Position numbers and translations under genes: made by a program. Below, in pieces: positions 47,443 through 56,306 of a stretch of 64,000 bases of DNA (position 1 is the stretch's first letter; each line of letters opens with the position of its first letter). The notes under the pieces were generated by a model that saw only the letters and a list, made by a program, of their open reading frames with translations, did no database searches and was not told the origin of the DNA. Location: assembly GCA_021776475.1 (NCBI GenBank), contig JAJFFV010000005.1, positions 310,001-374,000 on the forward strand, written 5' to 3'. Source of the stretch: Parvularculaceae bacterium. GTDB lineage: Bacteria > Pseudomonadota > Alphaproteobacteria > Caulobacterales > Parvularculaceae.

Positions 47443-47482
47443 AACCGCGCGACAACAAATATGTTTGGAAAGGCAGCGCTTC

Positions 47483-48880
47483 ATGAGCACGCAGGATTAC
47501 GTTGTTAAAGACATTTCACTGGCAGATTTTGGCAATAAGGAAATTGAAATTGCTGAAACAGAAATGCCCGGCCTGATGGCCACGCGCGAAGAATTTGGTG
47601 CAGCGCAGCCGTTGAAAGGCGCCCGCATTGCCGGCTCGCTGCACATGACAATCCAGACCGCCGTCCTGATCCAGACGCTCGAAGCCCTCGGCGCTGAAGT
47701 CCGCTGGGCCAGCTGCAACATCTATTCGACACAGGACCACGCAGCATCCGCCATCGCCGCATCGGGTACGCCTGTCTTCGCGGTAAAGGGCGAGACCCTC
47801 GAAGAATACTGGAACTATGCTGACCGCTTGTGGGAATGGCCAAATGGCGACCTTGCGAACATGATCCTCGATGACGGTGGTGATGCAACGATGCTGATCC
47901 TGCTCGGCTCGGAAGCAGAAGAAGATCCCTCGGTTCTGGATAATCCGTCTAATGAAGAAGAAGAAGCACTCTTCAACACAATTAAGAGCCGCCTTGAACG
48001 CGACCCGGGCTTCTATTCCCGCGTCAAAGCTTCCATCCAGGGCGTCACCGAGGAAACCACAACGGGCGTTCTGCGTCTTTATCAACGCGAAAAAGCTAAC
48101 GATCTCCCGTTCCCGGCGATTAACGTCAATGACAGTGTCACCAAGTCGAAATTCGACAACAAATATGGCTGCCGCGAGAGCCTCACAGATGGTATCCGCC
48201 GTGCGACTGACGTCATGATGGCCGGCAAGGTCGCTCTCGTCGCCGGGTACGGCGATGTTGGTAAGGGCTCAGCTGAGAGCCTGAAGGGCGCTGGCGCCCG
48301 CGTCATGGTCACCGAGATTGATCCGATCTGCGCCCTGCAGGCAGCGATGGACGGTTTCGAAGTCGTCACGATGGAGCAAGGTGCACCGCGTGCGGATATT
48401 GTGGTGACCGCCACGGGGAACAAGGACATCCTCACCGTCGATCACATGCGCTCACTGAAGGATATGGCGATCGTCGGTAACATTGGCCATTTCGACAATG
48501 AAATTCAGATCGATGGCTTGCGCAACTTCAAATGGACCAACATCAAGGACCAGGTCGATATGGTCCAGTTCCCCAACGGCAAGCGCATGCTCCTGCTCTC
48601 ACAGGGCCGCCTGCTCAATCTTGGCAACGGCACGGGCCACCCATCCTTCGTGATGTCCGCCTCATTTACCAACCAGACCCTCGCCCAGATCGAGCTCTGG
48701 ACTAAAGGGGAGCAGTACGACAATAAAGTCTACGTCCTGCCGAAACATCTCGACGAAAAAGTTGCCGCGCTGCATCTTGAAAAAGTCGGTGCCAACCTCT
48801 CAAGGCTGACCGACGAACAAGCCGCCTACATCGGCGTCTCCCCGGACGGTCCGTACAAATCAGATCAATACCGGTATTAA
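47483..48880 (+). CDS. ahcY: Adenosylhomocysteinase
   Basis: [102 protein letters not shown]-terminal KSDQYRY. Start corrected to 47483. Confidence 0.97.
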
Positions 48881-48892
48881 AAACTCTTCCGA

Positions 48893-48919
48893 TGTACTCC
48901 TCGAACTGGGCGGAGTACA
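48893..48919. terminator. Stem-loop between convergent ahcY and the 48948-49439 ORF
   Basis: tgtactcc-N11-ggagtaca, 8-bp perfect arms, 13 nt after the ahcY stop; no clear T-tract. Confidence 0.4.
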
Positions 48920-48947
48920 CGAAATATCCTGCTGGCGGAACGCAATA

Positions 48948-49439
48948 TCAGGCTCTGTACTGCAAAACAATATTGTGTACAGCTTGCTTCAGGCGGTGCA
49001 CTCTTTGATCAGACTCAGGCATCTCAAAATATTTTTGGCTTAATCGTAGTGAGAAGCTGGCGAAATCTGCTTCGCTGCCAGAAGAGGGATGCAACGTTCT
49101 AAATTTGAACACCCGCTCACCACCAGTTGCTTGTATCTGTAAGCAGCATGCTGCAACCGAAGTACAGGAGGGATCAATCTTGCCCAGTGGTATGATACAT
49201 TCTGCCTTGTTCAATACTACAGGATTACCAGGCTCGTACCGGTCGACTGTTTCCTCTATGTAAGTCAGAATTCCCTTTTCCTGATCAACTGAAATACTGA
49301 ACCGAGATATTTCGTCTGGTTCCTGGTGGTTAACCCAGTCATCAGCCAGCTCACTGAGCAACTTAGCTAGATCGTCATCACCCTTATCCACCAAGATTAA
49401 TTCCTCGATTGTTCCCACGCACATAACGGGCACATACAT
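48948..49439 (-). CDS. Hypothetical protein, putative partner of the TIR-WD40 protein
   Basis: 163 aa; overlaps the 3' end of the TIR-WD40 ORF by 56 nt in another frame; no recognised family. Confidence 0.6.
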   Translation of the reverse strand: MYVPVMCVGTIEELILVDKGDDDLAKLLSELADDWVNHQEPDEISRFSISVDQEKGILTYIEETVDRYEPGNPVVLNKAECIIPLGKIDPSCTSVAACCLQIQATGGERVFKFRTLHPSSGSEADFASFSLRLSQKYFEMPESDQRVHRLKQAVHNIVLQYRA

Positions 49440-51306
49440 CTAACCCCTCTCTGGACTTCAAGATAGGTGCCGCAACAATATCACCTGATGTAATGAATCG
49501 GGATGCGCCGCGCAACTGTCCTGTTTGCGGATTGCAAATTTTAGTCAGTTTGGTAACAATATCTGTATCCATTTCTTGCCATTCCTCGCCTTCTCTTGAT
49601 CTCATGTCCCACAGACGCGCTGTGCCGTCGGCGCTTGTTGTCACAACCGTATCAAGAGTTTTGTTGACAGTTACCGAAAGAACACCACCTTCGTGTCCTT
49701 GCAAGCGCATGATTTCATTTGCGAACATTTGCATCCATATCCTAGCTGTCCCGTCCATACTACTACTCGTCACAACACCATTAGCTATCGTGACAGATGT
49801 GATCGGTGCCTGGTGGCCGCGCAGAAGACTGCTCGGTGGCATTCCGAACCCGCCGGCGCCCAATGAGGAGACAGAGATGTTATTTGTGTTGTCTGTCAGC
49901 GCCGTCGTCACGCCTTGTGAATTCACGGAGGCGCTGGCAAGACGCCCGCCGTAAAAAGGCAGCTCAGCCTTCTCCGTGATCGGATCGGTCAAGCTCCAGA
50001 CTGTAATGCGTCCCTGATCAGCAGTGATCAATTCCGGCGCGTCTTGACCAAAAAAAGCCGCATAGAATTTTCTGTTTTCGCGCTTCAAAGTGAAGAGATT
50101 CTCGCCTGTTTCCACATTCCAAATGAACAAGGTGCCAGTCTCGTCGCATGTAACAAGGCGGCTCCCAGCCTCGTTAAATCGCGACCACACGACCTTACCC
50201 TGATGTCCCTCCAGAGAAACGGCAGTATTTTCTTGATTTGTCTGTCGCAGCCAGACCTCTCCTGTATCAGACATGATATTCATCGACATGCCATCAGAAC
50301 TGAAACTCAAGACAATACCAAAAACATCTTCGCTGCTGACTATATCCAGTGACTGAAGGTCCCAGACCTTGATGGTTTGATCAACGCCCGCTGTGATAAT
50401 ATGCGTGTCGTTTTCCATGAATGCCGCAGCTCGAACCGGCCCTTCATGCCCCACCAATCGGCCAATTCCTCTAGAAAAACTCGAGGCATCATAAAGTACA
50501 TTCGTCACTTCCGGATAGAAAGGGTGCAGCCAATCCTGGCGCGCAGCCAAAACCGCTAAGCGTAATGCCCGCTCGGCATTGGAACCTCTATCATCCGGTA
50601 ACGTCGGAGAAACGCTGTCCTCCAAGGCTGTGAATGAAAATATCGTCAGTTGACGGACTTCTTCGAGATTATTCGCTCTTGTAGATTTTACAGCATATCC
50701 GGATACAATCACGCCGACTGAGAGTGCCGCCACCGCCAATATTCGGTTCCGGGTTTTCCGGCGTCTGGTTTCGCGTTGCCACAAATTGTCAAACGGGACA
50801 TTCAGGATGCCTGCCGTCAATCGGGTTGTGAGGCGGTGCAAGCCTTCCTTTCGCCAGTCTGGTGCAAGTGGTTCCTCCGGTGTGTCTGTAAGTTCCCCTT
50901 CAACGGTGACCTTGAAACGCAATGAGGGGCAAAAACACTCCGTTATCGGATCGCCGGAATTAGGCACACCTTCGACTATCACAGCGAAGACTCTGGCATC
51001 AGAATTCCGTTTGAATCGGCGTACTTCCAGATCAACCCACTTCGACCGGGCCGAATTGGGACTGCACAATACGATCAGACACTCAGAGGCGGCCAACGCT
51101 TGTTCCAAAGCCGTCCCCAGATCTTCATTCGCCCCCATCTCGTCATCATCTCGGAAGACACGACCAATTTTTCTACTTGATGGATCAATATCTGCAACAA
51201 CACCTAAGGGCACCTTGTAGGACTCGAGCTCCCGGTGAAGTTTTTTCGCCCAGCGTTTGTCGTGCTGACTGTAACTCACAAAAGCTCTATACTTTGACTC
51301 TAACAT
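49384..51306 (-). CDS. TIR domain-TM-WD40 repeat protein
   Basis: MLESKYRAFVSYSQHDKRWAKKLHRELESYKVP...ALAASECLIVLCSPNSARSKWVDLEV (TIR), TM RILAVAALSVGVIVSGYAV, then at least four WD40-like repeats (e.g. GHEGPVRAAAFMENDTHIITAGVDQTIKVWDLQ; GHEGGVLSVTVNKTLDTVVTTSADGTARLWDM). Start placed at internal ATG 51306; ORF extends to 51414. Confidence 0.9.
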   Translation of the reverse strand: MLESKYRAFVSYSQHDKRWAKKLHRELESYKVPLGVVADIDPSSRKIGRVFRDDDEMGANEDLGTALEQALAASECLIVLCSPNSARSKWVDLEVRRFKRNSDARVFAVIVEGVPNSGDPITECFCPSLRFKVTVEGELTDTPEEPLAPDWRKEGLHRLTTRLTAGILNVPFDNLWQRETRRRKTRNRILAVAALSVGVIVSGYAVKSTRANNLEEVRQLTIFSFTALEDSVSPTLPDDRGSNAERALRLAVLAARQDWLHPFYPEVTNVLYDASSFSRGIGRLVGHEGPVRAAAFMENDTHIITAGVDQTIKVWDLQSLDIVSSEDVFGIVLSFSSDGMSMNIMSDTGEVWLRQTNQENTAVSLEGHQGKVVWSRFNEAGSRLVTCDETGTLFIWNVETGENLFTLKRENRKFYAAFFGQDAPELITADQGRITVWSLTDPITEKAELPFYGGRLASASVNSQGVTTALTDNTNNISVSSLGAGGFGMPPSSLLRGHQAPITSVTIANGVVTSSSMDGTARIWMQMFANEIMRLQGHEGGVLSVTVNKTLDTVVTTSADGTARLWDMRSREGEEWQEMDTDIVTKLTKICNPQTGQLRGASRFITSGDIVAAPILKSREGLDVCARYVRGNNRGINLGG

Positions 51307-51544
51307 TTTCGTTGCCTGCACGAGCTCTTGTTTCTCACGTAATGACGGTTGCAGAAGAAATTCGGGGAACAAACCGTAACTTCTTATATCGTGTTTCCTC
51401 TGCCTTACGACCATTTAATACGTGCCTAAACAGTCCCCATTTGAGCCAATTAGTCCACCGATAAGCAAAAAATTGTCGGCCAGTTTTCCAGGTCTGATTG
51501 ACCAGGGCATGCTTGCGTTGCCCCCTTTTTTACCACAAGATCAG

Positions 51545-52510
51545 CTAGTTTAAACCACGTTCGAATGCGACAGTGTGCGCAATCCCATCGTCGAGATCGA
51601 ACGGAGCCTTAAAAGCAACCGCGGTGCAGAGCTTTTCTCCTGAAAGGGCTAAAGGAACGGACAAATCAAGAGCGGAGATAGCAAGAGCCAACCCTCTTTC
51701 TTCACCCGCTGGGGCCTTTATATTGTAGGTCCAGCCAAGCGCTTCCGCGAACCGCTGAACCCAAACACTGTGTGGCGCGGGTGGCGTGTCCGTCACATTG
51801 AAGATGGAATTAAAAGCGCGCGTATCAGCCAACACATCGCAAATCGCCGCCGCGACGTTGCCGACATATCCGTAAGTCGTGGTCCAGTCCAACCAAGGCT
51901 GGGGCACTTCAAGCTCGCCAATGCCTGCAAGCATGGGTTGGATAACCCATCTAAATCGGCGATGGCGATCTTCGGGACCAAAAACCATTGGAAGGCGGAG
52001 AATGGTCCAATCGGTTTTCATACGCCGGACTGCGGCCTCGATTGGGATCTTGTCATAGGCATCAAGCCATAGGTCGGGATCGCCAATGCGACGCGCAACT
52101 TTGTTGCGGTAAGGATACCAGATGCTTCTCAGCGGCGCATTTTCATCCAGAAGCCCAAGAGTTGGGGATCCTGTTTCCATGCGATGAAGAAGGCCGTAGT
52201 TTCGATAGACGTCCGACGAACTCAGCAAAACATAGTGACCGATTTGTCCATCCAGGATCGTGATGAGTCGATCAGTTTCTCCTGGCCGGTAGGCCACGAC
52301 ATCCACAATCACGTCGACTTTGTATCGTTTGACGAGCGCAAGAACCATCTCCGGCTTGGCCCGATCCGCTTGAACCGTAACCAGTCGGTTGTTCACGGCA
52401 GGAGAAGTATTCCTGGAAGCAGAAACGATCATGTTTTGCTCGGACAAAATAAGCTGATCGACGACTGCGTTCCCAATCATTCCACCAGCACCGAGAACCA
52501 AGACCTTCAT
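51545..52510 (-). CDS. NAD-dependent epimerase/dehydratase family protein
   Basis: MKVLVLGAGGMIGNAVVDQLI, HYVLLSSSDVYRNYG, WTILRLPMVFGPEDR. Confidence 0.85.
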   Translation of the reverse strand: MKVLVLGAGGMIGNAVVDQLILSEQNMIVSASRNTSPAVNNRLVTVQADRAKPEMVLALVKRYKVDVIVDVVAYRPGETDRLITILDGQIGHYVLLSSSDVYRNYGLLHRMETGSPTLGLLDENAPLRSIWYPYRNKVARRIGDPDLWLDAYDKIPIEAAVRRMKTDWTILRLPMVFGPEDRHRRFRWVIQPMLAGIGELEVPQPWLDWTTTYGYVGNVAAAICDVLADTRAFNSIFNVTDTPPAPHSVWVQRFAEALGWTYNIKAPAGEERGLALAISALDLSVPLALSGEKLCTAVAFKAPFDLDDGIAHTVAFERGLN

Positions 52511-53465: not shown

Positions 53466-54203
53466 TTATTCATTCCCGGCCAGCCTCGATCGTTCGGTTT
53501 CAAACAACTCACAAACCTGCACGAATACCGCAGGTGATGAACAATCCACCGGAAACGCTTTGAGGGGGTTATACCCCAAGGCATCAGCGTCATCTTTGAA
53601 TTCCCGGCTGGCAGAATTCGCCGCCGGTTCGATAACCCGGACATTTGCACTAACCAGAACAGGCTGCGTAGAAAATATGGCAAGCCAGCCACTTTCCGGC
53701 CTCGCTTCGCCGAGTATAAATTTATTAAAGTCTGTATAAATATGATCTCTTATTTCTTGCCCTGCGGGTGACTCAAATTCCGTCTCCAGAACGAGCGCAT
53801 TTGTATGAAGACGGTTGGATTTGTAAATTGAAACCTTTCCGGCAGCTCCAGTGGTGTTCAATACTCGAACTTGTGTACTGGCATGGCGGCATAGACCATC
53901 CGGGAAACAATTTCGGCCGAGCGGATCGCGCCTGTCCTCTGAACCTTGTCTTGTGTGATTGACAATGCGATTTTCATAGCCCAGCACGATCCAGACACAG
54001 GATGCCGGTCTTGCAGCGCACCGTCGATAGAACAACTGATCACCAAATTCCTCCGCCGCGCCGGGAATAATATCAGGAAAATCCATTCCAGTCGGCGGCT
54101 TCACTGTACCCGTAGGCCTCTCAGGTATCTGTGCAACCGCTACAAAACCAGCGAATAGAAAAACAGACAGACCTGCCGCGATAGTTCTAAGAATGATCAT
54201 CAT
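53466..54203 (-). CDS. Hypothetical secreted protein
   Basis: Signal peptide-like MMIILRTIAAGLSVFLFAGFVAVAQ; several Cys; no recognised domain. Confidence 0.6.
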   Translation of the reverse strand: MMIILRTIAAGLSVFLFAGFVAVAQIPERPTGTVKPPTGMDFPDIIPGAAEEFGDQLFYRRCAARPASCVWIVLGYENRIVNHTRQGSEDRRDPLGRNCFPDGLCRHASTQVRVLNTTGAAGKVSIYKSNRLHTNALVLETEFESPAGQEIRDHIYTDFNKFILGEARPESGWLAIFSTQPVLVSANVRVIEPAANSASREFKDDADALGYNPLKAFPVDCSSPAVFVQVCELFETERSRLAGNE

Positions 54204-54475
54204 GGCCCCCAAATTTTGCCTGCGCCTAACCGCAAGCAAGCGAATGCTACACGACAAATTGTTCCCGGAAAACCCACAACATTAAGGTCGCATTTGCTGC
54301 GTGCGAATAGTGAACGCCGCCCATAAACTCAGCAGCGTGAGTGTGCGCCGAAGGGCCATAATGTTCAGTCGGAAATTTTACTGTATTGCCATCGCCGAAT
54401 AAAGCAGGCCCCACAAACAGCAATGGCTAAAAGTGGACACTCACCGGCGATGGATGATAAGAGAGACCATAAAAA

Positions 54476-55409: not shown

Positions 55410-56306
55410 CTAACCCAACTCGCCATTGATCAGTTTCATCACGCCAGAAAAATCGAGGTCTTCGGCAGCCGCAGCTTCCATCATCGCGTATAGCTGCTCG
55501 GCATGGGAGCCAAGAGGAATGGAGGCGTCGGCGCGTTCCGCGATACCGTGGGCAAGCCGCAAATCTTTCAGCATCATGGCGGCCGAAAAACCCGGCTGGT
55601 AGTCGCGGTTGGCGGGCGATGCCGGCACCGGTCCTGGCGCCGGACAATAGGACGTCATCGACCAGCACTGGCCGGACGCAGTGGAGGAAATATCAAAAAA
55701 AGTCTGCGCATCAAGACCCAGCCTCTCAGCGAGATTGAACGCTTCACAGGTGCCGATCATCGAGATTCCGAGTAACAGATTGTTGCACACTTTGGCGACC
55801 TGACCGTTGCCGAGGGCGCCTGCGTGAATGACGTTCTTGCCCATGACCTCAAGATAAGGCCGGGCTTTGTCGAAGTCCTCCTTCTCGCCGCCAGCCATAA
55901 AAGTCAGTGTACCCGCTTCTGCCGCTACTGTGCCGCCGGAGACCGGTGCATCAACAAACGGAAAGCCGCGCTCCCTGGCGCCCGCGCCAATCGCTCGTGC
56001 GGTATCAACGTCAATCGTCGAGCAGTCGATGAATATCGTGCCCGGTTTGATCGACGATGGTAATCCGTCCGGGCCCGTATAAACATCAGCCACATGTTTA
56101 CCAGCAGGCAGCATTGTGATCACGACATCAATATCGCCGGCAAGAAACTCGGACAGTTTGTCAACGCCCTCACCGCCGCCGCTGACATGAGCCGCCACAA
56201 GGTCGCTCACCAGATCACACCCGTAAACCGTGTGACCAGCTTTCACTAGATTGGCCGCCATGCCCGATCCCATATTGCCAAGGCCAATAAAAAGAATGCC
56301 GCTCAT
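55410..56306 (-). CDS. mmsB: 3-hydroxyisobutyrate dehydrogenase
   Basis: ILFIGLGNMGSGMAANLVKAGHTVYGCDL, FVDAPVSGGTVAAEAGTLTFMAGG, GNGQVAKVCNNLLLG. Confidence 0.93.
   Translation of the reverse strand: MSGILFIGLGNMGSGMAANLVKAGHTVYGCDLVSDLVAAHVSGGGEGVDKLSEFLAGDIDVVITMLPAGKHVADVYTGPDGLPSSIKPGTIFIDCSTIDVDTARAIGAGARERGFPFVDAPVSGGTVAAEAGTLTFMAGGEKEDFDKARPYLEVMGKNVIHAGALGNGQVAKVCNNLLLGISMIGTCEAFNLAERLGLDAQTFFDISSTASGQCWSMTSYCPAPGPVPASPANRDYQPGFSAAMMLKDLRLAHGIAERADASIPLGSHAEQLYAMMEAAAAEDLDFSGVMKLINGELG

What the first reader, a model, noticed from the sequence alone, without database searches (positions are those of the whole stretch)
48948..51414. TIR-TM-WD40 protein with a small overlapping downstream ORF: candidate two-gene NAD-depleting or conflict system
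Sequence shows: a TIR domain (FVSYSQHDKRWAKKLHREL...SARSKWVDLEV), a single TM segment, and a WD40 propeller region, with no NACHT/STAND NTPase visible between them. The SxxW-x3-E spacing fits the position of the catalytic Glu in NADase TIRs. A 163 aa orphan ORF starts inside its 3' end with a 56-nt overlap. Established: prokaryotic TIR domains are often NADases in anti-phage systems such as Thoeris and CBASS-TIR, and WD40 or STAND architectures act as sensors. Inference: a membrane-tethered TIR effector-sensor fusion with a dedicated partner, sitting in an accessory pocket next to ahcY, whose product is linked to nucleoside metabolism.
Basis: partly seen in the sequence, partly recalled or inferred. 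Interest (0 to 1): 0.75.

Follow-up and report, generated by a model that had tools for sequence, protein, structure and literature searches.

The report
Membrane-anchored bacterial TIR enzyme with swappable sensor
This gene encodes a predicted NAD-cleaving TIR enzyme tied to the membrane and fused to a WD40 sensor; its front half is widespread, but at this same chromosomal spot another genus keeps the front half while the sensor half and the neighbouring gene are completely different, which suggests an immune-type receptor whose sensing part is exchanged.

Summary
In detail: a 676-aa TIR–TM–WD40 gene (49384–51414, minus) and a 163-aa ORF overlapping its 3' end by 56 nt. The catalytic Glu (E130) is invariant in 49 of 49 aligned sequences. 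TIR, a linker motif ending FDNLWQRE and one TM helix form a constant module, found in about a third of order-level relatives and also in Bacteroidales and Lachnospiraceae. What follows the TM varies: WD40, TPR or unknown. Basic residues lie before the TM (K/R 156 vs 69 over 28 proteins), so the TIR is probably cytosolic and the WD40 outside. The 163-aa ORF is an orphan: no relative in any collection searched, none beside other TIR–WD40 genes, so a dedicated conserved partner is not supported. New: in another genus the same locus (GGDEF/EAL–ahcY–X–mmsB) holds the closest TIR–TM module (about 70% identical) with an unrelated C-terminus and, in the orphan's place, a TPR-S/nucleotide-cyclase gene. 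Sensor and companion differ at one shared locus. Two congeners carry other defence-like genes there. Best reading: a membrane TIR-NADase receptor of immune type. NADase activity, defence and topology are inferred, not shown. Linkage to ahcY reflects a variable site, not metabolism.

The parts
49384..51414 (-). TIR-TM-WD40 protein, 676 aa (possible true start at M37, 51306)
50965..51294 (-). TIR domain, residues 41-150 (TIR_2 / ThsB_TIR)
   Evidence: alignments
51025..51027 (-). codon of the putative catalytic Glu130 (SKWVDLE)
   Evidence: invariant 30/30 and 49/49
50770..50874 (-). conserved linker/juxtamembrane motif, residues 181-215 (EPLAPD...FDNLWQRE)
   Evidence: P182 and L211 49/49, R214 47/49; FDNLWQRE identical in Bacteroidales and Lachnospiraceae relatives
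50686..50742 (-). transmembrane helix, residues 225-243; basic stretch RETRRRKTRNR on its N side
49591..50463 (-). WD40 propeller region, residues 318-608
48948..49439 (-). orphan 163-aa ORF, 56-nt overlap with the TIR gene
49444..49452 (-). Shine-Dalgarno-like AGAGAGGGG upstream of the orphan ORF
47480..48880 (+). ahcY, left border of the variable slot
55410..56306 (-). mmsB-like 3-hydroxyisobutyrate dehydrogenase, right border of the variable slot

Best explanation
The 676-aa protein is a single-pass membrane receptor-effector. An N-terminal, cytosol-facing TIR domain with an intact NADase-type active site is joined by a conserved linker to one TM helix, and then to a WD40 propeller that most likely lies outside the inner membrane. 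The propeller (or something that binds it) senses an infection- or attack-related signal; clustering across the membrane brings TIR domains together, which cleave NAD+ and either deplete it or make an ADP-ribose-type messenger. The TIR-TM half is the constant part of a large family; the sensor half and the gene next door are exchanged, here at one orthologous chromosomal slot. The 163-aa ORF is probably a real, fast-evolving or recently acquired cargo gene translated together with the receptor; a regulatory role is possible but not shown. Shown by sequence: architecture, conserved catalytic Glu, constant module, different sensor and companion at one shared locus, orphan status. Inferred: topology, NADase activity, defence role, clustering.
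For: TIR_2 and WD40 over cut-off, no STAND NTPase. E130 49/49, S118 49/49, P182 49/49. Constant TIR-linker-TM with WD40, TPR or unknown C-termini. K/R before versus after the TM 156:69 over 28 proteins, 25 with more before, 3 ties, none reversed. The closest modules (L035, L036; about 70% identity over about 180 residues) lose identity at the TM, and their C-terminal domain carries a CGTGGC cysteine motif of the kind seen in exported domains (sequence; inference). Same locus: L146 is collinear with the window (GGDEF/EAL, ahcY, TIR, mmsB, thiolase), but only window 50776-51294 of the cargo matches. Congeners hold another TIR (L098) or a GmrSD_N protein with PADLOC hits NsnA/PD-T4-2_A (L099) in the same ahcY-mmsB slot. 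The same slot without any TIR gene exists in G015. Orphan ORF: SD-like site and unlikely open frame.
Against: No full-length match to a known defence family: the best PADLOC matches are TIR-only (SAVED_TIR E 3e-7, ThsB E 5e-4). Structure models were poor (pLDDT 43 and 44), so neither fold detail nor topology is confirmed. Cysteine content after the TM is low in WD40 and TPR members, so an exported location is not independently supported for them. Mobile-element signatures at the slot were not tested. The slot evidence rests on a handful of genomes.
Confidence: 0.5

Rival explanations
1. The TIR-TM-WD40 protein acts alone; the 163-aa ORF is an unrelated or non-coding passenger, and the WD40 is cytosolic with the TM only a membrane anchor.
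For: Orphan ORF absent beside every other TIR-WD40 gene looked at and in all collections. WD40 proteins are usually cytosolic (general knowledge). Low-confidence fold of the ORF.
Against: Positive-inside bias favours the WD40 on the far side. The ORF's open frame is unlikely by chance and has an SD-like site in the overlap. Genes of different kinds sit immediately downstream in other TIR-TM loci.
Confidence: 0.3
2. A two-gene system as first proposed: the 163-aa protein is the dedicated inhibitor or activator of the TIR effector.
For: 56-nt overlap and SD-like site suggest coupled translation. Its place is taken by a TPR-S/cyclase gene at the same locus in another genus, and small variable genes lie between TIR-TM and cyclase genes elsewhere.
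Against: No conservation with any TIR-WD40 relative; no detectable family.
Confidence: 0.15
3. Not defence: a membrane TIR that makes an ADP-ribose-type signal in ordinary envelope-stress or developmental regulation.
For: The module is frequent in this order, chromosomal here, and not found in the phage and viral collections; several relatives sit with nucleotide-cyclase-like genes.
Against: Patchy presence within a genus, exchange of sensor halves, and location in a slot with other defence-like cargo.
Confidence: 0.25

Closest known systems
SARM1-like/prokaryotic TIR NADases, e.g. SpbK (PMC12847820, abstract)
   Same: TIR domain with an SxW-x3-E-type active-site Glu; SpbK is a demonstrated antiphage NADase
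   Different: Here TIR is N-terminal, followed by a TM helix and WD40; no NADase assay
Thoeris ThsB (PF08937)
   Same: TIR scores to the ThsB_TIR model over its cut-off
   Different: No ThsA-type effector gene nearby; PADLOC ThsB only E 5e-4 over part of the domain; TM and WD40 fused
STAND/AP-ATPase-WD40 receptors (APAF-1, TIR-STAND proteins, DUF4062-NACHT-WD40 TEP1; PMC13174449)
   Same: Effector domain plus WD40 propeller thought to sense; APAF-1 WD40 among PDB matches
   Different: No NTPase; the TM helix stands in its place
Animal Toll-like receptors
   Same: Single-pass membrane protein predicted to have a cytosolic TIR and a repeat sensor outside (analogy of layout)
   Different: Reversed order (TIR first), WD40/TPR not LRR, TIR with enzymatic Glu; analogy only, no homology claim for the sensor
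TIR-TPR proteins of TIR survey group 6 (PMC7075850)
   Same: N-terminal TIR with C-terminal repeats
   Different: That group is mainly actinobacterial; the passages read do not describe this linker-TM module

Membership tests
TIR domain NADase (enzymatic TIR) | TIR domain detectable by sequence | tested here: met
   TIR_2 E 2e-13, ThsB_TIR E 3e-9, both over cut-off
TIR domain NADase (enzymatic TIR) | Conserved catalytic Glu in the SxW-x3-E position | tested here: met
   E130 invariant 49/49
TIR domain NADase (enzymatic TIR) | NAD+ cleavage | not testable with these tools
   needs biochemistry
Thoeris | ThsA-type effector gene beside the TIR gene | tested here: not met
   neighbouring ORFs are ahcY, the orphan ORF, an epimerase, DsbA-like, S1/P1 nuclease
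STAND/NLR-like receptor | NB-ARC/NACHT NTPase between effector and repeats | tested here: not met
   no NTPase family among the Pfam matches shown; TM helix in that place
CBASS TIR effector | SAVED/STING sensor or CD-NTase nearby | tested here: not met
   TIR-only match to the SAVED_TIR model, residues 34-147; no such genes among the window ORFs by inspection
Two-gene TIR-WD40 plus partner system | partner conserved with TIR-WD40 genes | tested here: not met
   orphan in all searches
TIR-linker-TM-variable sensor family (described here) | constant TIR + EPLAxD...FDxLxQR linker + TM, variable C-terminus | tested here: met

The most novel reading that the evidence does not exclude
Bacteria carry a widespread class of membrane TIR receptors, laid out like Toll-like receptors (sensor outside, NADase TIR inside), whose sensor halves and companion genes (orphan small proteins, TPR-S/nucleotide cyclases) are exchanged by recombination at fixed chromosomal slots, giving a diversifying envelope-surveillance immune repertoire.
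Probability: 0.25. Interest if true: 0.85.

Novelty: new variant of a known kind. Interest (0 to 1): 0.5.

Why it matters
Prokaryotic TIR immune proteins studied so far mostly sense inside the cell. A membrane TIR with a sensor probably outside, and with the sensor swapped while the enzyme half stays constant at the same locus, would give a natural series for asking what these receptors detect and how a signal crosses the membrane to switch on a TIR enzyme. Companion nucleotide-cyclase genes in sister loci make a second-messenger link testable.

Tried and rejected
Homologues of the 163-aa ORF: 98 order genomes, genome contigs, viral contigs, 386 class genomes, plasmids, phages, Pfam, PADLOC, NCBIfam, PDB: nothing beyond chance; the marginal class-level hits looked, on reading the alignments, like unrelated proteins or frames with stops. 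AlphaFold of the ORF without an alignment: pLDDT 43, no structural match with E <= 0.001; a PH-like fold was considered from the predicted order of strands and a C-terminal helix, but is only a guess. AlphaFold of the TIR-TM-WD40 protein with two distant relatives: pLDDT 44, matches only reflect WD40. Homology between the orphan ORF and the small genes of L049/L053/L054: not supported (best E 0.05 in a four-sequence comparison). Functional link to ahcY: rejected as a site effect.

Full report
Observation. Pfam finds TIR_2 at residues 45-150 and WD40 repeats from about 318 to 608, and no STAND-type NTPase among the listed matches. One hydrophobic segment, 225-243, stands out. The putative catalytic Glu is E130 in SKWVDLE.

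Is the small ORF real? A frame of this length stays open with probability about 3.5e-4 in a Markov model of the local DNA, and AGAGAGGGG precedes its ATG inside the TIR gene. Its codon score is about two standard deviations above shuffled sequence, weaker than its neighbours. It is lower in GC (0.459) than the TIR gene (0.503) and the window (0.534). I judge it probably coding, but it has no relatives anywhere I could look: 98 order-level genomes, one genome for each of 85k species, viral contigs, 386 class-level genomes, plasmids and phages, three family libraries and the PDB.

The constant module. The TIR, a linker (EPLAPD...FDNLWQRE) and the TM are conserved as a unit. TIR-module hits occur in about a third of the 99 genomes of the order set (my count of hits that cover the TIR), but in only 9 of 386 genomes spread over the class at a strict threshold. 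The C-terminus after the TM is WD40 (one or two propellers), TPR or unknown. E130, S118, P182 and L211 are invariant in 49 sequences. Relatives in a Bacteroidales and a Lachnospiraceae genome keep FDNLWQRE identically, so the layout is found across phyla.

Topology. In 28 proteins there are 156 K/R in the 15 residues before the TM and 69 in the 15 after; 25 have more before, 3 tie. By the positive-inside rule (established knowledge) the TIR is cytosolic and the sensor outside. The closest relatives have a CGTGGC motif in the C-terminal domain (sequence), reminiscent of disulfide-bearing exported domains; this is inference. The structure model (pLDDT 44) cannot test it.

Locus comparison. In G022, a different genus of the family, the order is GGDEF/EAL, ahcY, TPR-S/cyclase, TIR-TM, mmsB, with thiolase beyond, collinear with the window. 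The TIR-TM module there is the closest found (about 70% identity), but identity falls to background at the TM, and of the window's 48881-51414 only 50776-51294 matches. Where the window has the WD40 half and the orphan ORF, G022 has an unrelated C-terminal domain and a TPR-S (PF20308)/MAP3K_TRAF_bd/guanylate-cyclase gene. G017 has the same pair beside mmsB, with a 4-nt overlap; G009 of the same genus lacks the pair at that junction. G015 has recR and a peptidase between mmsB and ahcY. In the window's own genus, G002 has a different TIR gene next to ahcY (TIR_2 E 1e-18) and G004 has a GmrSD_N gene with PADLOC hits NsnA and PD-T4-2_A. The ahcY-mmsB interval is thus a variable slot that repeatedly holds defence-like genes. 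That explains the neighbourhood better than a metabolic link to ahcY.

Companion genes in the family. TPR-S/cyclase-like genes lie next to TIR-TM genes in L035, L036, L051, L053, L054, L137, L139 and L143, and 3.1 kb away in L141 (the cyclase domain itself was not detected in L137, L139 and L143). In L053, L054, L139 and L143 a small gene sits between the two, and these small proteins differ from each other. The window's orphan ORF therefore fits a pattern of variable companions, but is not a member of a detectable companion family.

Literature. Searches of the held library for TIR with WD40, TM, TPR, SLOG or cyclase found reviews and defence papers but no description of this TIR-linker-TM-variable-sensor family. 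That is weak evidence of novelty, since most subscription papers are missing. A recent preprint describes TIR-like DUF4062 NADases, in animals fused to NACHT and WD40 (PMC13174449), the nearest functional parallel.

Mechanism. I commit to a membrane TIR-NADase receptor whose extracytoplasmic propeller triggers clustering of cytosolic TIR domains, at confidence 0.5. Shown: architecture, conserved active site, constant module, different sensor and companion at a shared locus. Inferred: topology, enzymatic activity, defence role, ORF function.

Noticed in passing
L036:2426-5595, L035:4286-7633, L053:6063-10656, L054:3019-7309, L137, L139, L143: Recurrent operon-like pairing of TIR-TM genes with a TPR-S/class III cyclase-like gene, sometimes with a small variable gene between them; no description found in the papers searched.
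   Followed up: partly
L048:6212-6892 and L048:8350-10194 (window's own genome, contig C1): A 226-aa TIR protein with C-terminal hydrophobic segments near a cyclase-domain protein related to those beside TIR-TM genes, with one 472-aa ORF between.
   Followed up: no
L098:15249-16190 and L099:14940-16040: Congeners of the window's organism carry a different TIR gene and a GmrSD_N gene in the ahcY-mmsB slot: a candidate defence hotspot.
   Followed up: partly
L049:8479-9069, L053:8111-8770, L054:4758-5210, L143:7483-8028: Small proteins next to TIR-TM genes share a C-terminal pattern like DPxIxN by eye, although the pairwise comparisons made were not convincing.
   Followed up: no
window 53466-54257 (-): 263-aa ORF in the variable slot without any Pfam match, next to an S1/P1 nuclease gene.
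   Followed up: no
window 51545-52510 (-): NAD-dependent epimerase-like gene in the slot without a match in nine close relatives.
   Followed up: no
L148:5548-8304 (Sinorhizobium sp. K101 plasmid pK101b): A TIR-module relative on a large plasmid, with a hypothetical protein gene overlapping its start and an autotransporter gene convergent to it.
   Followed up: no
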